Positions 4,937-26,127 of a stretch of DNA of 34,733 bases are shown in pieces. Below the pieces are notes generated by a model, which saw nothing but the letters and a program-made list of their open reading frames with translations, ran no database searches and was not told where the DNA came from. Source of the stretch: a virus. Both the position numbers and the translations under genes were made by a program. Location of the stretch: positions 1 to 34,733 of IMG/VR virus record IMGVR_UViG_3300013129_000013; one strand, given 5' to 3'. How positions within the stretch are numbered: position 1 is the first letter of the stretch; every line of letters begins with the position of its first letter.

Positions 4937-7900
4937 ATGGCAGCACAACCATTTGATAAAGAAACAATAGATAAAATAACATCGGCGTTTAATAACTTAA
5001 ACTCCGAAACTACTAAGACATTATCTCAACTTGAAGCGAGTGTTGAGGCTGAGAAACAAATGGTTGATATAGCTAAGCAACTCGGTCAAGTATATAAAAC
5101 ACAACAAGATAAGCTTAACGATCAGTTAAAAGGAAAAAATTTACAAGAAAAATTACAAGAAAAACTAAAAAATTCCGAAAAGGAATTAGCAGACTTTGCG
5201 CAGGCGCGAATCAATAGTTTTCTTAAAATAAACAGTTTACAAGAAGAATTAAATGCCACTAGTGCACAACTTCTTATAGAACAAAATAAAGACCCGCATA
5301 GTGATAAGGTTAAAGAATTACTTAATACGATTCAATCAAAAGATAAAGAGTTAAATTTAGAACAAGATTTATTATCTAAAAGTGGAGAAATAAATAACTT
5401 TTTACAAATAAAAAATGATTTGTTAAAACTGGGAAATAAGTTATTGGAAATATACAATAACTTATTAGATAAAGCTAAAAAAGGGTTAGACATGATGGTT
5501 CAGTCTGCCAATAGTTTAATGACTAAATTAAACATGCCCACTACAGTGTTCGGTACTTTTGAAAAAATACTCAACATATTTAATCAAATTGATACAGCAG
5601 CAACGAACATAAGACAAAAATTTGGATTACTATCAAGTCAAGGTGAAATTTTCGAAAAAAATATACGTGAAGCTTCAATTGAATTAGCATCATTTGGAAT
5701 TACGGCTGAAGAATTAGGCGGTACAATGAAATCGATAGGTTCTACTTTTACAAGTTTGCAATCTATGGAAAAGGGATTAGTAAAAGATGTTTCATTAATG
5801 TCTGCACAGTTTGGAGTATCGGCTGATACCAGTGTTAAATTTTTACAAACTTTAGGCGGTGTATCTGGTAAAAGTGCAATTGCAAAACAGAATATGTTAG
5901 GATTGGCAAAATTTGCTGCAAATGCTTATGGTGTTGGATTGGATGATGTCATGGGTGATGTTGCAAATGCATCAGATGAAGCCAGAATGTTTGCTGGTAA
6001 AAATGCAGATGAAATGGTCAGAGCCGCTGCTCAAGCCAGACAGATGGGCACCACACTCGACAATATGGCTAGAACCGCAAAAGGCCTTCTTGACTTTGAA
6101 AGTAGTATTCAGTCGGAGCTAAAAGCTAGTGCTTTAATTGGTAAAAATATTAATTTTAATGAAGCTCGTAGATTAGCATTTCAAGGTAAAATCGCTGAAT
6201 CTAATAAAGTGATATTGGATCAGGCTAAAAAAATTAAATTTAACCAATTGAATCCTATTGCGCAAGAAGCATTCGCAAAAGCGGCCGGTAAGAGTGTAAA
6301 AGAATTGCAAGATATGTTAAACGCTGAAGAAAACTTAAACGCCGCTTTAAAATCAAAAGATCCAATGGTTAAAGCCGAAGCTGAAAAAAGAAAAAAGATG
6401 TCGGAAATGATGCAAAAAGACCCAATAGCTGCTAAAAAAGCAGCGCAGGCTGAATACGAAAAGGGTTTGATTCAAGAGAAAAATCAAACAAGAATGAAAC
6501 AGTTGCAAAATGAAATTAATGCAATTTTTATGGAGTTTATAGGCCCAATACTAGAAGGAATAGGGCCAATATTTACTGACATATTAAAGTATATAAGAGA
6601 TAACCGTGACTCTATTAAATCGTTTACAATAGAAGTTGGTAAGTTATTTTTGGCATTTAAAAGTTTAGAAATAATATCAAAATTATCAGGTATAATTGGT
6701 AAATTAATTTCCGGCGTAGGGTCATTTGTAAAATTAACATCATCTTTGTCTGGTGGTTTACTTAAGGCGACAGGTTTTATGATTGGTTTGGCAAAAAATG
6801 TGAATCCGATTGTAATCTCAATGACATCTGTAACAGCACAAACACAAAAATTTGCGTCTCTATTACAATCTGCTTCTACTAAAGTCAAAGGATTTGGTAG
6901 TGGTTTTCAAAATATTTCAAAATTTATTGGAGCAGGAGCGTCACAAGTTCAAAAACTTTCAACAGTTTTCAGTAAAATTAAATTTAATTTGCCGGTCGGA
7001 AAAATTGCAAATGTATTTTCAAACGTGTTCACAAAGGTGGGTGGATCAGTGAAGAAAATAGGGAGTTTAGTAGGCGGAGTATTTGGTAAACTTGGCTCAG
7101 GAGTTGGAATTTTCTCAAAACTAGGACCATTGTTTGGCGCCGTTAGTAAATTTTTAGGGCCAATTGGCATCGTTATATCTACAATTCAAGCTGGTATAGC
7201 CTTTTTCAAGGCGTTTAGTGAAACTACAGGTACTACAAGTCAAAAAGCTGTGGCTGGTTTAAAAGCCGTAGTAAATGTTTTGGTTATAGAACCGTTAAAA
7301 ATGATTTGGGATTTTATTAAAAAAATACCAACGTTTCTCGCCGAGGTAGACTTCGGTGCAATATATAAAGACGTAACTACATATTTGTTGGATGCATTGA
7401 CAAGCTTGCCTGAAAAAATAGAAGAACTTTTCAGCGGCGAAGGTGGGGGGGGTATTGATTGGGGAAATATATTTTATAACATAGGAAATCTTTTTTTTCA
7501 AATGTTTATGTTTAGTGCAATAAAACTGCCTATTGCAATGTCTACGTTAGTAGTAAAATTAGGAGTATTAATTGTCAAGGGAATTGGCTCGTTAGTACTA
7601 AACCTAGGAATATTAATTCTTAAAGGAATTGCTTCGATAGGAATGTCTCTTTTAGAATTAATAATGTGGCCATTTAAAAAGGCTTTAAAATGGGTAGAGG
7701 AACAGTGGGGTGGTAAATCTCCATCGAAAATTGGTTTAGCAATCGTCGATGGTATTAAATCTGTAGTGGATATGTTATTTGATTTAATCACATATCCATT
7801 TAAAAAAGCAGCTGAAATTATCCCGGAAATGATTAATATTTTAAAAACAACATTTGTTGACGCTTTTAAATCTATAGTTGATGTGTTATTTGACTTGATT

Positions 7901-8350
7901 ACGTATCCATTTGAAAAAGCGTTTCAACTAATAAAGTCTACTGTATCGGAAGTTGGATCCGTTCTAAAAGATACATTCAGTGGCGCTTTTACATTTATTA
8001 TTAATGCGCTTGAAAAAGTATTGGAGAAGTTAAAAGGAGTAGGTGAATTTATAACCGGTTTAGTAGGAAACGGATTTAAATTTGTTGGTAAAATACTTGG
8101 TGTTACTGATGAACCTACTGATAAATCTACGAAAGTTGATGAAAAATATAAACAACAAGGTTTACAAACTGATTCTATTATTAATGCAATCGTAAGTTCA
8201 AACAAAGCGGTGGTTGAAAAACTAGATAAACTAACATCGATGATGGCATCTGGTCAAATTGCTGTGTATATTGACGGTCAACGTGCAAATCAACTATTGG
8301 CAACAAGTAATTCAAAATTTGGTTCATTTGGTCAAGCAACAACCAATTAA
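4937..8350 (+). CDS. tape measure protein
   Basis: 1137 residues, the largest gene here, placed after the tube and chaperone genes as tape measures are. Residues ~1-190 are charged, heptad-rich coiled coil (KLNDQLKGKNLQEKLQEKLKN-type). Next come alpha-helical Ala/Gly-rich parts and a glycine-rich hydrophobic zone (~570-760), then very hydrophobic helices (~870-930). Two 37-residue repeats are built round VDMLFDLITYPFKKA and VDVLFDLITYPFEKA (~940-1010). The C terminus is polar and ends GSFGQATTN. The protein would set tail length and leave through the tube at ejection, the hydrophobic helices possibly acting at the host membrane. No lysozyme or peptidase motif was recognised. Confidence is high from size, position and composition. 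Confidence 0.88.
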   Translation: MAAQPFDKETIDKITSAFNNLNSETTKTLSQLEASVEAEKQMVDIAKQLGQVYKTQQDKLNDQLKGKNLQEKLQEKLKNSEKELADFAQARINSFLKINSLQEELNATSAQLLIEQNKDPHSDKVKELLNTIQSKDKELNLEQDLLSKSGEINNFLQIKNDLLKLGNKLLEIYNNLLDKAKKGLDMMVQSANSLMTKLNMPTTVFGTFEKILNIFNQIDTAATNIRQKFGLLSSQGEIFEKNIREASIELASFGITAEELGGTMKSIGSTFTSLQSMEKGLVKDVSLMSAQFGVSADTSVKFLQTLGGVSGKSAIAKQNMLGLAKFAANAYGVGLDDVMGDVANASDEARMFAGKNADEMVRAAAQARQMGTTLDNMARTAKGLLDFESSIQSELKASALIGKNINFNEARRLAFQGKIAESNKVILDQAKKIKFNQLNPIAQEAFAKAAGKSVKELQDMLNAEENLNAALKSKDPMVKAEAEKRKKMSEMMQKDPIAAKKAAQAEYEKGLIQEKNQTRMKQLQNEINAIFMEFIGPILEGIGPIFTDILKYIRDNRDSIKSFTIEVGKLFLAFKSLEIISKLSGIIGKLISGVGSFVKLTSSLSGGLLKATGFMIGLAKNVNPIVISMTSVTAQTQKFASLLQSASTKVKGFGSGFQNISKFIGAGASQVQKLSTVFSKIKFNLPVGKIANVFSNVFTKVGGSVKKIGSLVGGVFGKLGSGVGIFSKLGPLFGAVSKFLGPIGIVISTIQAGIAFFKAFSETTGTTSQKAVAGLKAVVNVLVIEPLKMIWDFIKKIPTFLAEVDFGAIYKDVTTYLLDALTSLPEKIEELFSGEGGGGIDWGNIFYNIGNLFFQMFMFSAIKLPIAMSTLVVKLGVLIVKGIGSLVLNLGILILKGIASIGMSLLELIMWPFKKALKWVEEQWGGKSPSKIGLAIVDGIKSVVDMLFDLITYPFKKAAEIIPEMINILKTTFVDAFKSIVDVLFDLITYPFEKAFQLIKSTVSEVGSVLKDTFSGAFTFIINALEKVLEKLKGVGEFITGLVGNGFKFVGKILGVTDEPTDKSTKVDEKYKQQGLQTDSIINAIVSSNKAVVEKLDKLTSMMASGQIAVYIDGQRANQLLATSNSKFGSFGQATTN
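7752..7925 (+). repeat. two degenerate 111-bp repeats in tape measure gene
   Basis: Two in-frame copies about 111 nt apart (starting near 7756 and 7867) encode the similar blocks KSVVDMLFDLITYPFKKA and KSIVDVLFDLITYPFEKA. They have diverged at synonymous sites, so the duplication is not recent. Confidence 0.6.
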
Positions 8351-21704: not shown

Positions 21705-22514
21705 ATGGAAAACAAAAAAGCAATTGATTCATTAATTAAGTATGGTCGGGATTTTCAACTCAAGTGCATTTCATGCCTAATATCAGATCGTTCGTTTATT
21801 GAACGTATTAATGATATTATTGAAGTGGAGTTCTTCGAAAGCGATGCTAATAAATGGATTCTAAAAGAAAGTTTGGCATATTTTAACGAATATAAAGATT
21901 TGCCTACATTAACAGTATTCAAAATTAAAATTGATACTGTATCAGACGATGTTCTTAAAAAGAGTATCGTAGACAATTTAAAGTTAATTTATCAAAAGGT
22001 AAATGACAATGATTTAAAGTTTGTAAAAGAACAGTTTCTAGAATTCTGCAAGAACCAGAAGTTGAAGAATGCTATTATGGAAAGTGCCGATCTACTTGAG
22101 ATCGGTCAATATGATAAGATTAAACACGTTGTGGATCAGGCTATGAAAGCCGGTATGGAACGTAATATCGGACATGATTATACTGAAGACGTTGAAAAAC
22201 GTATGAGTGTTATGAGTCGTAATTGTATTAAAACCAACTGGACTGAAATTGATACCATTATGGATGGTGGTCTTGGACCCGGTGAACTTGGTATTATTAC
22301 AGCTTGTGCTGGTAGCGGCAAATGTATAGGTCCGAACACAGAAATTGAAATTGAATATCATGAATTCGGAATAGAAACTACGAGTTCTTCGGGTAAAATA
22401 TTTGTATTATGGATTAATCCATTTGAAAAATACAAAATAGATGAAACTGAATTATTTGGATGGCAAGTAGAAAATATTTTTTATGAAATTAAAAAAATAA
22501 AAAATGTTATTTAA
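21705..22514 (+). CDS. gp41: gp41-like replicative helicase, N-terminal half + N-intein
   Basis: 269 residues. Residues 1-206 are the N-terminal part of a DnaB/gp41-type helicase: N-terminal helical domain, linker, then WTEIDTIMDGGLGPGELGII and an interrupted Walker A, ITACAGSGK. At residue 207 the helicase is broken by Cys1 of an intein (CIGPNTEIEIEY, block A). A 51-residue extension follows, ending KKIKNVI and TAA. The motor core is therefore missing and continues at 22565 in another frame. The product should be inactive until trans-splicing with the second protein joins GSGK to SWVLSKLG. There is no SD. Extein identity is confident; the splicing function is inferred from conserved residues. 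Confidence 0.85.
   Translation: MENKKAIDSLIKYGRDFQLKCISCLISDRSFIERINDIIEVEFFESDANKWILKESLAYFNEYKDLPTLTVFKIKIDTVSDDVLKKSIVDNLKLIYQKVNDNDLKFVKEQFLEFCKNQKLKNAIMESADLLEIGQYDKIKHVVDQAMKAGMERNIGHDYTEDVEKRMSVMSRNCIKTNWTEIDTIMDGGLGPGELGIITACAGSGKCIGPNTEIEIEYHEFGIETTSSSGKIFVLWINPFEKYKIDETELFGWQVENIFYEIKKIKNVI
22323..22511 (+). mobile_element. N-terminal fragment of a split intein (63 residues)
   Basis: It begins with the nucleophilic Cys directly after the Walker A Lys. Only the first ~12 residues (CIGPNTEIEIEY) look like the conserved intein block A. The rest (HEFGIETTSSSGKIF to KKIKNVI) is a non-conserved extension that may help the halves find each other. No endonuclease motif is present. Confidence 0.75.
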
Positions 22515-22520
22515 ATAAAC

Positions 22521-22544
22521 ATACAAATTGTTACTGGTTTGTAT
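22521..22544 (+). promoter_or_regulatory. hairpin in the 50-bp gap between the split helicase halves
   Basis: ATACAAATT (22521-22529) pairs with GGTTTGTAT (22536-22544): seven Watson-Crick pairs plus two G-U, loop GTTACT. No T run follows, so it is not a clear terminator. It could affect translation of the second half or mRNA processing, or be a scar of rearrangement. Confidence 0.4.
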
Positions 22545-22564
22545 AGAAAAAATTAAAAAGTTTT

Positions 22565-22972
22565 ATGAGATTACTAATTAAAAATGTTCGTGAAAAGATT
22601 AAAGTCAAAGATTTGTTTAATAGATTAAATATTAAAAATGAAGAAAATGCTATTGAACAGTTAAAATTTCCGTTGAGAGTAAATACTCCGTTTGGTTTCA
22701 AAAAAATAGTAACGGCGTTTCGAACGGAAAATCAAAAAACAATAACTTCATATTTTGGAAACAATAAAACACTGAAAACATCGGGAAAACATAGATTAAA
22801 AGTTAATGGTTCCTGGAAATATGTTGAAGATATAAGTGTAGGTGAATTAGTTGAAACTGAAACTGGTTTATCAAAATTGATTTCAAAAAAAGAAGGAAAG
22901 GAAGAGATATTGTATGATATTTCTGTTGAAGAAGTACATTGCTATTATAGCAACGGTATTCTTTCTCACAAT
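22565..22972 (+). mobile_element. C-terminal fragment of a split intein (136 residues)
   Basis: It contains blocks B, F and G, unlike usual C-inteins of ~35-50 residues which carry only F and G. Its length and content match atypically split inteins broken near the N terminus (the AceL-TerL type, with a short N piece and a long C piece). It is AT-richer than the flanking extein DNA, which fits mobile origin. Confidence 0.78.
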
Positions 22973-23737
22973 TCTTGGGTACTATCTAAGTTGGGTGCTG
23001 AAGCTATGAAACAAGGTAAGAATGTAGTACATTTTACTCTAGAGCTAAATGAAAACTATGTTGGTCTACGTTATGATAGTTGTTTTACTGGAATTGATTT
23101 CCAAAACATTCGCAATAACGTAGATATCGTAAAACAGAAGATCGCTGAGGTAACTGGTAAGTTAAAAATTAAATACTTCCCAATCAAAACAGTTAGCGCA
23201 TATAGTCTAAAGTCTCATTGTGAACGATTGGCCGTATTAGGTACTAAAGTAGATATGATTATTGTTGACTATGCTGATATTCTAAGGCCGTCACAAAGTG
23301 AACGTAATAGTAATAGCTATAGTGAAGCTGGCGGTATCTATGAAGAACTACGTGGTGTAGCTGGTGAATTACAAGTTCCTATTTGGAGTGCTTCACAGAG
23401 TAATCGTGCTGCTATGGATGAAGATATTATTCAGGCTAACAACATCGCTGATAGTTATCGTAAGATTATGACAGCTGATTTCGTTATGTCACTAAGTCGT
23501 AAGGTTAACGATAAACAAGCAAATACTGCAAGATTCCATGTAATTAAGAATCGTTTCGGACCAGATGGTTTGACATTTCCTGCTAAGATGAATGCTGGTT
23601 GTGGTCAAATTGAAATTTATAGTGAGAATTCCAAGGAAGGTATGGGTATTCTTAATGAGATGATGGATGGTGAAAATCAAGTTAAGAAAGCACTTAAGTC
23701 CAAGTGGAATGTTCACAATAGCGATGATGACGAATAA
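22565..23737 (+). CDS. gp41: C-intein + gp41-like replicative helicase, C-terminal half
   Basis: 390 residues from ATG 22565. Residues 1-136 are intein: a KIKVKDLFNRL segment, VNTPFGFKKIV, block B KTSGKHRL (S73, H76), block F EILYDISVEEVHCYYSNG and block G ILSHN ending in the His-Asn pair. Residue 137 is Ser, the +1 nucleophile, and starts the second extein SWVLSKLGAEAMKQGKNVV, which completes Walker A. It continues with FTLE, Walker B MIIVDYADIL, PIWSASQSNRAA (sensor/H3) and a KNRFGPDG...SDDDE end, as in T4-like helicases. Spliced, the helicase would be 460 residues, close to T4 gp41 (475). The frame differs from the N-half and stops close every frame of the 50-bp gap. There is no clear SD. 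Confidence 0.87.
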   Translation: MRLLIKNVREKIKVKDLFNRLNIKNEENAIEQLKFPLRVNTPFGFKKIVTAFRTENQKTITSYFGNNKTLKTSGKHRLKVNGSWKYVEDISVGELVETETGLSKLISKKEGKEEILYDISVEEVHCYYSNGILSHNSWVLSKLGAEAMKQGKNVVHFTLELNENYVGLRYDSCFTGIDFQNIRNNVDIVKQKIAEVTGKLKIKYFPIKTVSAYSLKSHCERLAVLGTKVDMIIVDYADILRPSQSERNSNSYSEAGGIYEELRGVAGELQVPIWSASQSNRAAMDEDIIQANNIADSYRKIMTADFVMSLSRKVNDKQANTARFHVIKNRFGPDGLTFPAKMNAGCGQIEIYSENSKEGMGILNEMMDGENQVKKALKSKWNVHNSDDDE

Positions 23738-23803
23738 TTTATAGTGTGTGAGAATAAAAAAGCATAAAAAAAATTACTAAAAAAGTTACAATCTAAACAC
23801 TAA

Positions 23804-23842
23804 ATGAACTATCCAAAAGATAGTTATTTTTTACCTGTATGA
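23804..23842 (+). CDS. possible 12-codon leader peptide upstream of nrdA
   Basis: ATG at 23804 opens MNYPKDSYFLPV and ends with TGA that overlaps the nrdA start (ATGA). The hairpin AACTATC-CAAAA-GATAGTT lies inside it. The overlap would couple nrdA translation to this leader. It is too short to judge coding character and has no SD, so confidence is low. Confidence 0.25.
   Translation: MNYPKDSYFLPV
23807..23831 (+). terminator. hairpin plus T-run just before nrdA (terminator or attenuator)
   Basis: AACTATC (23807-23813) pairs with GATAGTT (23819-23825), loop CAAAA, then ATTTTTT. It has terminator form but only two G-C pairs. It sits 13 bp before the nrdA start, so it could end helicase transcription or attenuate nrdA. 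Confidence 0.5.
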
Positions 23843-26127
23843 ATAAAGAAATTTTTATAAAGAAGAGAAATGGTAACACCGAGAAATTCAACGCAGACAA
23901 GATCAACAAGATCTTACAATGGGCTACAGAGGATATAAAAGGAGTTGGTTTTGAAGAAGTTGCAATGAATGCACATTTGTCATTCTTCGATGGTATGACT
24001 TCTAAGGATATACATTCAATGTTGATTGAGGCTTCGGCTAATCTTATTACAGAGGAAAAGCCTAACTATCAATATGTAGCCTCACGTTTGTTAAACTATC
24101 AGTTGAGAAAGAATGTCTGGGGAGGTAAGAATCCACCCAAACTATATGATCTAGTTAAATTAAATATTGACGCTTTGGTTTATGATGACAATATTCTCAA
24201 TTGGTATAGTAAACAAGAGTTTGATAAGTTAGATGAATTTCTAAAGCATGATCGTGATTTTAATTTCACTTATGCTGGTATCAAACAATTGTGTGATAAG
24301 TACTTGGTACAAAATCGTATTACTAAAACCATCTATGAAACTCCACAGTTTGCATATATGCTTATTGCCATGACTTTCTTTAAAGATTATAAAGAAAAGA
24401 GACTAGATTATGTCAAGAAGGCTTACAACTATTTTAGTAAGCATAAGATTAATCTACCAACGCCTATTATGGCGGGTGTAAGAACTCCTATGAAGAGTTA
24501 TGCTAGCTGTTCACTATTTAGTGTAGACGACGATCTACGTAGTATTTTCAGCAACAATAGTGCTGTAGGATTTGCTACTGCTAGTCGTTATGGTATCGGA
24601 TTGAATCTATCCAGACTACGTGCTACTAACGCACCAATTCGTAATGGCGAAGTTGTACATACAGGTCCAATTCCATTCAGTAAGGCATTTGAATCAACCG
24701 TAAAGAGTTGTCATCAAAATGGAATTAGAGGGGGCAGTGCCACCGTCAACTTCGCTTGGTTTCATTATGATATTCTTGATATTCTTGTATTGAAGAACAA
24801 TCAAGGTACTGATGACAATCGTGTACGTAAACTAGATTATTGTATTGGTTTAGATAAACTAATCTTTGAACGATTTATTAAGAATCAAGATGTAACACTA
24901 TTCAGTTATCACGAATGTGCTTCCCTTTGGAATACTTTCGGTATGGAAGGATTCAAAGAAAAGTATGAAAAGGCTGAGACTAATAAGAACATCAAATTCA
25001 AAAAGAAAGTACCGGCTAGAGAATTGATAGGACTACTTGCTAAAGAACGTCTTGAAACCGGACGTATTTATACAATGTTTGTTGATCATGCCAATGAACA
25101 CGGTAGTTGGTTGGATCAAGTAGATACAAGCAATCTATGCCTTGAAGTCAATCATCCATTAACTCCAATTTATGATGTTAATGATTCAAATGGTGAAATT
25201 GGTGTATGTGTATTAGCAGCACTAAATTGGTTGGAGATCAAAGATGACGATGAAATGGCAAGTGTTTGTGATATTATTGTCAGAATGTTGGATGCTTTGA
25301 TTGATCATCAAGAATATTTTGTACCAGCCGCAAAGAATTTTGCTACTAAACGTCGTAGTCTTGGTGTAGGTGTAAGCAACTTGGCTGCTCTATTGGCTAA
25401 GGAAGATTTAAAGTATTGGGATACCAAGACTCCAAACTTTGTCGCTAAGTGGATGGAAAAGACAAGTTATTATTTGATTAAGGCAAGTGTTGAAATGGCT
25501 AAAGAAGTTGGTAAATGTGAAAAGTTTGAACGTACTAAATTTAGCCAAGGAGTTCTACCAATTGATACCTACAAAAAAGATGTAGACGAATTTATTAAAG
25601 AACCTCTACATTGTGATTGGGAAACATTACGTGGTGAAATCAAGAAGTATGGAATGCGTCATAGTACACTTACTGCTTGTATGCCTGTAGAGTCTAGTAG
25701 TGTAATTCAAAGCAGCACCAATGGTATCGAACCACCTCGTAGTGCTATTAGCTTCAAGGGTAGTAAGAGTAACATTTTGCCTGTGGTAGTTCCTAATATT
25801 GATAAGTATAAGGATAACTATACATTTGCTTTTGATATGCCAAGCAATGAAGGATATCTAAAGGTAGCAGCAGCTATTCAAAAATTTACGGATATGAGTA
25901 TTAGTACAAATACTTACTATATTCCATCTCGTTATGATAAAAATAAAGTTCCTGTTCAAGAAGTGATCAAGGATATGTTACTGGCCTACAAATATGGTCT
26001 AAAGAACTTGTATTATGCTAATACTGATGACGGAGACAAACAAACTGCTATGGAAACAAAAGCAGTAGAAGCAAAACCAAAAGTACAAGAAGAATCTGGT
26101 TGTGCCAGTGGTGCTTGTGCTCTATAA
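23839..26127 (+). CDS. nrdA: class Ia ribonucleotide reductase, large (alpha) subunit
   Basis: 762 residues, the same size as E. coli NrdA (761). The N terminus (FIKKRNGNTEKFNADKINKIL) is an ATP-cone. The active site is complete: C224 in YASCSLFS and C457 in IGVCVLAALN form the reducible pair, and N432, C434 and E436 in SNLCLEVNHP give the thiyl-radical Cys and its partners. The radical-transfer Tyr pair is in LYYANTDD. The tail ends with C755-x4-C760 (GCASGACAL), which re-reduces the active site via thioredoxin or glutaredoxin. It makes deoxyribonucleotides for phage DNA. Its 3' neighbour is nrdB. No intein or intron interrupts it, although nrd genes are frequent targets. The call is secure. 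Confidence 0.95.
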   Translation: MNKEIFIKKRNGNTEKFNADKINKILQWATEDIKGVGFEEVAMNAHLSFFDGMTSKDIHSMLIEASANLITEEKPNYQYVASRLLNYQLRKNVWGGKNPPKLYDLVKLNIDALVYDDNILNWYSKQEFDKLDEFLKHDRDFNFTYAGIKQLCDKYLVQNRITKTIYETPQFAYMLIAMTFFKDYKEKRLDYVKKAYNYFSKHKINLPTPIMAGVRTPMKSYASCSLFSVDDDLRSIFSNNSAVGFATASRYGIGLNLSRLRATNAPIRNGEVVHTGPIPFSKAFESTVKSCHQNGIRGGSATVNFAWFHYDILDILVLKNNQGTDDNRVRKLDYCIGLDKLIFERFIKNQDVTLFSYHECASLWNTFGMEGFKEKYEKAETNKNIKFKKKVPARELIGLLAKERLETGRIYTMFVDHANEHGSWLDQVDTSNLCLEVNHPLTPIYDVNDSNGEIGVCVLAALNWLEIKDDDEMASVCDIIVRMLDALIDHQEYFVPAAKNFATKRRSLGVGVSNLAALLAKEDLKYWDTKTPNFVAKWMEKTSYYLIKASVEMAKEVGKCEKFERTKFSQGVLPIDTYKKDVDEFIKEPLHCDWETLRGEIKKYGMRHSTLTACMPVESSSVIQSSTNGIEPPRSAISFKGSKSNILPVVVPNIDKYKDNYTFAFDMPSNEGYLKVAAAIQKFTDMSISTNTYYIPSRYDKNKVPVQEVIKDMLLAYKYGLKNLYYANTDDGDKQTAMETKAVEAKPKVQEESGCASGACAL

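What the first reader, a model, noticed from the sequence alone, without database searches (positions are those of the whole stretch)
21705..23737. Atypically split intein breaks the gp41-like helicase at its Walker A lysine
Seen: the helicase is in two frames 50 bp apart; the first ends GSGK + Cys-led intein start, the second begins with intein blocks B, F and G and resumes with Ser at SWVLSKLG. All expected splicing residues are present (Cys1, block B S/H, block F His, terminal His-Asn, +1 Ser). Known: split inteins occur in phage gp41, RNR and terminase genes, and most break after block B; a rarer class (AceL-TerL type) breaks near the N terminus. Here the N piece is 63 residues, of which only ~12 look conserved, and the C piece 136. 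The KIKVKDLF and VNTPFGF...KTSGKH order in the C piece supports the second class. The insertion inside the P-loop means no helicase activity without trans-splicing, so replication could be gated by intein assembly.
Basis: partly seen in the sequence, partly recalled or inferred. Interest (0 to 1): 0.88.

Follow-up and report, generated by a model that had tools for sequence, protein, structure and literature searches.

The report
Split intein that lost its endonuclease
A freshly transferred protein-splicing element has cut a phage's replication helicase into two genes that must be rejoined as proteins; the DNA-cutting gene that normally sits between the halves has been deleted, leaving a visible scar, and an almost identical phage without the element shows exactly what was inserted.

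Summary
A T4-like phage gp41/DnaB-type helicase is cut at its Walker A lysine (GSGK|S) by a class 1 split intein: IntN 22323-22511 (63 aa), a 50-bp gap with stops in all three frames, IntC 22565-22972 (136 aa), Ser+1. Removing both pieces gives an open 460-aa helicase that aligns without gaps to intein-free alleles. The family has 37 distinct inteins, all at the helicase GK|(S/T). Most carry a Vsr-like endonuclease gene between the halves. The window does not, but 22540-22581 still encodes that gene's last 13 residues (CIEKIKKFYEITN*). Six other distinct relatives also lack it, and five are contiguous. Near-clonal phages without the intein differ from the window at 50 sites in the 363 bp flanking the insert, against 24 in 22.6 kb elsewhere: a co-conversion tract typical of recent homing. 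About 55 IntN residues are conserved, not about 12; in an AlphaFold2 model of a fused relative they add a beta-beta-beta-alpha piece at split position S1 (VidaL, PolB16), not S2 (AceL-TerL). And gating of replication is unsupported, because near-isogenic phages lack the element. Splicing itself is inferred, not shown. New variant of a known kind.

The parts
21705..22322 (+). N-extein: gp41/DnaB-like helicase residues 1-206, ending at the Walker A lysine ...ACAGSGK
   Evidence: phrog_19 E 9e-26; 21705-22226 is 100% identical to intein-free alleles L006/L085/L086 and to L149
22227..22322 (+). Left co-conversion tract: 18 of 50 differences from the near-clonal empty allele
   Evidence: G003 contig (99.977% identical over 21.86 kb) ends exactly at 22226
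22323..22511 (+). IntN, 63 codons starting with Cys1; stop codon 22512-22514
   Evidence: 92% aa / 95.8% nt identical to IntN of L084; conserved in 36 other distinct inteins
22515..22564 (.). 50-bp spacer: left part homologous to the DNA after IntN in L084; stops in all three forward frames
22540..22581 (+). Remnant of the deleted endonuclease gene: codes CIEKIKKFYEITN*, the C-terminal 13 residues plus stop (12 of 13 identical to L084), overlapping the IntC start
22565..22972 (+). IntC, 136 codons: own ATG start, KIKVKDLF, block B TSGKH, block F DISVEEVHCYY, block G SHN
   Evidence: TIGR01443 above cut-off; A1 profile hits gp41-1 intein 6qaz E 7e-6 and VidaL 6vgv E 1.6e-3; dN/dS 0.06 against L084
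22973..23734 (+). C-extein: helicase residues 207-460, starting with Ser+1 (SWVLSKLG); stop 23735-23737
   Evidence: DnaB_C PF03796 E 1e-15; phrog_19 E 1e-46
22973..23239 (+). Right co-conversion tract: 32 of 50 differences from the near-clonal empty allele; 23240-25990 identical again

Best explanation
The helicase gene carries a class 1 split intein at its P-loop, broken at position S1 near the intein N terminus. The two half-genes are translated separately. IntN (63 aa, block A strand plus an extra beta-beta-beta-alpha piece) and IntC (136 aa) associate, Cys1 and Ser+1 carry out standard trans-splicing, and an intact 460-aa helicase with a restored GSGKS Walker A is released. The ancestral element is a three-gene cassette IntN - Vsr-like endonuclease - IntC, whose endonuclease presumably cuts empty P-loops and copies the cassette in by break repair. 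Here the endonuclease gene has been deleted down to its last 13 codons, but the fracture remains. The element entered this phage lineage very recently from a related, unsampled phage, carrying about 96 bp and 267 bp of donor flank with it. Shown from sequence: gene structure, catalytic residues, site, family, endonuclease scar, conversion tract, purifying selection on IntC. Inferred: trans-splicing activity, endonuclease cleavage of the empty site, and whether the endonuclease was lost before or after arrival.
For: Frames and stops; seamless 460-aa spliced ORF. Empty-site alleles read ...ACAGSGKSWVLSKLG. 37 distinct inteins at GK|(S/T): 25 split with an endonuclease gene, 7 split without, 5 contiguous. 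HEN tail remnant in the spacer. Vsr-like HEN in relatives: PDB Vsr 1vsr/1odg/1cw0 at E 1-2e-3 with FWH...D...LG-vLI-WE aligned, MTES_1575/DUF559. The intein's nearest relative is L084 (IntN 95.8%, IntC 89.0% nt) although L084's exteins are only 68% and 75% identical, while the exteins of L082 are 83-88% with an intein of 75-76%. 50 differences in the 363 bp of flanks against 24 in 22,594 bp elsewhere versus G001, 19 of those 24 near a second replaced segment. Empty allele and HEN-bearing intein alleles come from the same two metagenomes, 3300014720 and 3300013132. IntC dN/dS 0.06 against L084. Fused relative L251 models as an intein (pLDDT 95; top PDB match VidaL 6vgv).
Against: No splicing or cleavage assay exists. 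The recombinant junction and the spacer are found in no other viral contig, so the HEN-less copy rests on one assembly. The donor allele is unsampled. IntN alone gives no significant PDB sequence match. dN/dS of IntN against L084 is 0.37 on only 8 changes. The structural model is of L251, a fused relative, not of the window's own two chains.
Confidence: 0.86

Rival explanations
1. Assembly chimera: an assembler joined the intein-bearing kilobase of another phage into the contig of the near-clonal empty phage.
For: Junction and spacer occur in no other viral contig. On the right, some relatives share up to 45 bp with the window at the tract edge.
Against: On the left edge no sampled relative shares more than 15 bp with the window, too short for a k-mer join. 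The G003 contig stops exactly at the last shared base, 22226, as expected of a real branch between two alleles in that population. The tracts flank the insertion point as homing predicts. Even if chimeric, the HEN-less intein itself would still be real.
Confidence: 0.07
2. Dead element: the intein or helicase is broken by the frame change and the phage copy is non-functional.
For: Frame changes and stops lie between the halves; IntN dN/dS against L084 is 0.37 on few changes.
Against: All relatives with the cassette are broken at the same place with the same IntC start, and seven distinct inteins are split without the endonuclease. All splicing residues are kept; IntC dN/dS is 0.06; the exteins are open and gap-free against functional alleles. 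Large related contigs hold one helicase gene, so a dead copy should be lethal.
Confidence: 0.05
3. Acquisition by ordinary phage recombination, with no endonuclease involved at any step of this transfer.
For: The window's copy has no endonuclease gene. A second replaced segment (about 5.3-7.9 kb) also separates the window from G001, so general recombination occurs.
Against: The exchanged tract is short, brackets the intein site, and is flanked by kilobases of identity, which is the signature of break repair at the site. HEN-bearing cassettes for this site occur in the same metagenomes and could act in trans, as MobE does for a defunct T4 element (PMC2988022).
Confidence: 0.25
4. The split intein is a regulatory gate that times phage replication through assembly of the halves.
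For: The Walker A motif is physically divided, so an unspliced helicase should be inactive. DnaB inteins of mycobacteria are reported to respond to stress (PMC6195587).
Against: Near-isogenic phages without the intein occur (100% identity over 2.9 kb and 2.75 kb on either side) and most relatives have empty sites, which fits a tolerated parasite better than a needed switch.
Confidence: 0.04

Closest known systems
Fractured genes with split inteins and free-standing Vsr/EDxHD-type homing endonucleases (Dassa et al. 2009, cited in PMC13014065; text not held)
   Same: Phage replication gene broken into two half-genes by a split intein, with an endonuclease gene between them in relatives; Vsr-like nuclease domain in the relatives.
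   Different: The break and the endonuclease sit at the N-proximal S1 position instead of the canonical site, and the window has lost the endonuclease. How this compares with the individual cases of that paper could not be checked.
VidaL and PolB16 OarG inteins (S1-split)
   Same: Split right after strand 2; short N piece and long C piece; VidaL 6vgv is the best PDB structural match of the fused relative (E 2.7e-7).
   Different: IntN is 63 aa instead of 15-16, because a beta-beta-beta-alpha piece is added before the break.
TerL inteins of Campylobacter phages (CP21, CP220), Vibrio phage Kuja and Aeromonas phage PX29 (AceL-TerL kin, S2-split type)
   Same: Nearest inteins in isolated phages, 33-39% identity over about 100 residues and top structural matches in BFVD. 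PX29 gp17 is split, with a GIY-YIG nuclease fused to its C-intein.
   Different: Other host gene; the AceL type breaks after helix 1, so KIK-x-x-DLF lies on the N side there (AceL sequence recalled, not tested); different nuclease family in PX29.
gp41-1 intein
   Same: Best sequence match of the IntC profile in the PDB (E 7e-6); same kind of host protein.
   Different: Canonically split; insertion site not compared.
DnaB inteins of Mycobacterium (PMC6195587)
   Same: Inteins in a replicative helicase; insertion at the Walker A region is recalled, not read in the paper.
   Different: Contiguous, cis-splicing, bacterial.

Membership tests
Class 1 intein | Nucleophile Cys/Ser at position 1, block B (S/T)xxH, C-terminal His-Asn, Cys/Ser/Thr at +1 | tested here: met
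   C1, S73xxH76, H135-N136, S+1; conserved across the family
Class 1 intein | Hint/intein fold | tested here: met
   TIGR01443 above cut-off; fused relative L251 models at pLDDT 95 and matches only inteins at the top of the PDB list. Pfam PF14890 is below its cut-off
Class 1 intein | Protein splicing activity | not testable with these tools
   needs co-expression
Split intein / fractured gene | Halves on separate ORFs, exteins reconstitute one protein | tested here: met
Split intein / fractured gene | Free-standing endonuclease gene between the halves | tested here: not met
   Absent in the window; only 13 terminal codons remain. Present in 25 of 37 distinct inteins of the family
S1 atypically split intein (VidaL, PolB16) | Break right after strand 2, before strand 3 and helix 1 | tested here: met
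   KIKVKDLF strand-helix lies in IntC; in the L251 model the break falls in the low-confidence loop 63-70 between helix 46-62 and strand 71-81
S1 atypically split intein (VidaL, PolB16) | IntN of about 15-16 aa | tested here: not met
   63 aa, about 55 conserved
S2 atypically split intein (AceL-TerL, GOS-TerL) | Break after helix 1 | tested here: not met
   Helix-1 segment VKDLF is in IntC
Vsr/EDxHD homing endonuclease (for the ORF in relatives) | Vsr-like catalytic domain | tested here: met
   PDB Vsr chains at E 1-2e-3; vsr TIGR00632 E 2e-3 for L041, below cut-off; MTES_1575 up to E 4.5e-9
Vsr/EDxHD homing endonuclease (for the ORF in relatives) | Site-specific cleavage of the empty helicase site | not testable with these tools
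   needs an enzyme assay
gp41/DnaB-like replicative helicase | DnaB_C domain with Walker A | tested here: met
   PF03796 E 1e-15, phrog_19 for both halves

The most novel reading that the evidence does not exclude
A lineage of helicase P-loop inteins uses an undescribed architecture: an S1 break with a structured extension of IntN, and a free-standing Vsr-like endonuclease gene lodged at S1 instead of the canonical site. It cycles among cassette, endonuclease-free split and contiguous forms, so a gene can stay fractured after its endonuclease is gone and the endonuclease-free split form can still spread. The window catches such a transfer within a near-clonal natural phage population.
Probability: 0.55. 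Interest if true: 0.72.

Novelty: new variant of a known kind. Interest (0 to 1): 0.62.

Why it matters
Naturally S1-split inteins are few and prized as labelling tools; this family adds many, with a different N piece. The locus also turns open questions about fractured genes into direct tests: matched empty, occupied-with-endonuclease and occupied-without-endonuclease alleles exist, and a deletion scar and conversion tract are readable in one sequence. It shows that the fracture outlives the endonuclease, in several lineages.

Tried and rejected
Sequencing frameshift in a continuous gene: rejected, because stops lie in all three frames and the break is conserved in relatives. Functional hairpin or terminator in the spacer: the stem forms but is no better than shuffles (z -0.93 for the spacer alone, +1.04 with flanks). 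Missing Shine-Dalgarno as a sign of a dead C half: most genes in the window lack one too. Host of the element in bacterial genomes: no relative found in genome contigs. Same intein in isolated phages: only distant TerL inteins among the hits listed. L084 as the direct donor: rejected, its exteins are only 68-75% identical. The key papers on fractured genes, VidaL and GOS-TerL are not in the library, so previous description of this exact site or family could not be excluded. T4Lh search: no papers.

Full report
WHAT IS THERE. The window is a 34,733-bp virus record with T4-like replication genes: gp32-like protein, RecA/UvsX, 5'-3' exonuclease, helicase, NrdA and NrdB. The helicase is in two ORFs, 21705-22514 and 22565-23737, in different frames, with stops in all three forward frames of the 50-bp gap. 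The halves hit adjoining parts of the same PHROG, positions 163-366 and 367-598 of phrog_19. Removing 22323-22972 gives one 460-aa helicase that aligns without gaps to an intein-free allele. Empty alleles read ACAGSGKSWVLSKLG, so the insertion is exactly after the Walker A lysine.

INTEIN ANATOMY. IntN has 63 residues (22323-22511) starting with Cys1. IntC has 136 residues (22565-22972) with block B TSGKH, block F DISVEEVHCYY and terminal SHN, followed by Ser+1. TIGR01443 (intein C-terminal splicing region) is above its cut-off. An IntC profile finds the gp41-1 intein (E 7e-6) and VidaL (E 1.6e-3) in the PDB. The N piece is conserved far beyond block A: W[IV]-x-P[FW] and GW[QR] motifs run to about residue 55 in most of 37 distinct inteins.

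STRUCTURE. Five relatives carry the same intein as one chain: L191, L193, L215, L218 and L251. AlphaFold2 of the L251 intein, with the separate pieces as alignment rows, gives mean pLDDT 95 and pTM 0.88. Strand 7-20 is followed by strands 26-31, 36-39 and 42-45, helix 46-62, a low-confidence loop at 63-70, then strand 71-81 and helix 82-88. The best PDB match is VidaL. The break in the window falls in the 63-70 loop, after an added beta-beta-beta-alpha piece and before the strand and helix that hold KIKVKDLF. PMC13014065 defines S1 as the site right after strand 2 (VidaL, PolB16) and S2 as after helix 1 (AceL-TerL, GOS-TerL), and gives 15-37 aa as the IntN range of natural atypical splits. The window is therefore an S1-type split with an unusually long, structured IntN. 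That strand 71-81 pairs with strand 7-20 is my inference from the fold, not measured.

THE MISSING GENE. All nine relatives first found with this intein have an ORF of roughly 240-320 residues between IntN and IntC. Its nuclease domain matches Vsr in the PDB (1vsr, 1odg, 1cw0; E 1-2e-3) and Pfam MTES_1575/DUF559. The window lacks it. The left half of the spacer matches the DNA after IntN in L084. The right half (22540-22581) encodes CIEKIKKFYEITN*, the C terminus of the L084 endonuclease with one substitution, overlapping the IntC start. This is a deletion scar.

FAMILY HISTORY. Among 37 distinct inteins, 25 are split with an endonuclease ORF, 7 split without and 5 contiguous, all at helicase GK|(S/T). 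On a maximum-likelihood tree every endonuclease-free split row is its own change (7 changes for 7 rows, at least 6 forced by well-supported branches) and contiguity changed at least 4 times. L200 and L212 retain longer endonuclease remnants. The window is sister to L084 with 97/92 support. Direction of change cannot be read from an unrooted tree; the remnants show loss for the window, L200 and L212.

RECENT TRANSFER. Three contigs are near-clonal with the window. G003 is 99.977% identical over 21.86 kb and ends exactly at 22226, so it does not reach the insertion site; G001 and G002 span the site and have no intein. Against G001 there are 50 differences in the 363 bp that flank the insert (22227-22322 and 22973-23239), and 24 in 22,594 bp elsewhere, 19 of them bordering another replaced segment near 5.3-7.9 kb. 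Of the 50, 33 are at third codon positions and they cause 9 amino-acid changes. So a functional donor helicase tract came in with the intein. Such co-conversion of flanks is the classic mark of endonuclease-driven homing in T4 (PMC2988022). The intein is closest to L084 (IntN 95.8%, IntC 89.0% nt), whose exteins are only 68% and 75% identical; L082 shows the reverse. The empty allele and cassettes with an endonuclease occur in the same metagenomes (3300014720: L006 and L084; 3300013132: L086 and L007).

HOW IT MOST LIKELY WORKS. The halves are translated separately, IntN and IntC assemble, and class 1 trans-splicing restores the P-loop. The endonuclease of the cassette presumably cuts empty sites. 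The present copy came in either with the endonuclease, lost soon after, or already without it, mobilised in trans. Trans mobilisation of a defunct element by the free-standing MobE is known in T4 (PMC2988022). Which of the two happened is open. IntC is under purifying selection against L084 (dN/dS 0.06); IntN has too few changes to judge.

GATING. An unspliced helicase should be inactive, but near-isogenic phages without the intein exist and most relatives are empty. The simplest reading is a tolerated parasite. Large related contigs (up to 297 kb) show one helicase gene only, so splicing is probably required where the intein is present; the window itself is a fragment, so a second copy is not excluded.

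LIMITS. One assembly supports the recombinant. The junction and spacer are not in other viral contigs. A chimera is disfavoured because no sampled relative shares more than 15 bp at the left edge and because G003 ends exactly at the branch point. The key papers (Dassa 2009, VidaL, GOS-TerL) were not readable, so whether this exact family was already listed there is unknown.

Noticed in passing
L007/L083 (3300013132_002633), L242, L173 and others: The helicase carries a second split intein at SQ(A/S/T)NR|C with its own endonuclease, so the gene is in three pieces (G010, G011 and G012).
   Followed up: partly
L220-L232: Relatives of IntC (39-44% and lower) are followed by P-loop-like S/T sequences in long proteins that look like gp46/SbcC-type ATPases, some with an endonuclease upstream; the family may favour P-loops in general.
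   Followed up: no
window 4937-8350 (1137-aa tail-protein-like ORF): G001 is nearly identical to the window on both sides but carries a different sequence at about 5372-7709, another recent module exchange.
   Followed up: no
L002 4260-5888: The ribonucleotide reductase gene next to the helicase is interrupted by an intein-like sequence (TSNLCLHPDTLV) that the window's NrdA lacks.
   Followed up: no
L261 (Aeromonas phage PX29 gene 17): An isolated phage has a split terminase with a GIY-YIG nuclease fused in front of the C-intein, a cultured system for testing split inteins with an endonuclease at the break.
   Followed up: partly
L002 2289-3014, L084 3821-4621: In the cassette form the endonuclease stop codon lies just after the IntC start codon (overlap of about 15 nt), which suggests translational coupling that the deletion in the window would have removed.
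   Followed up: no
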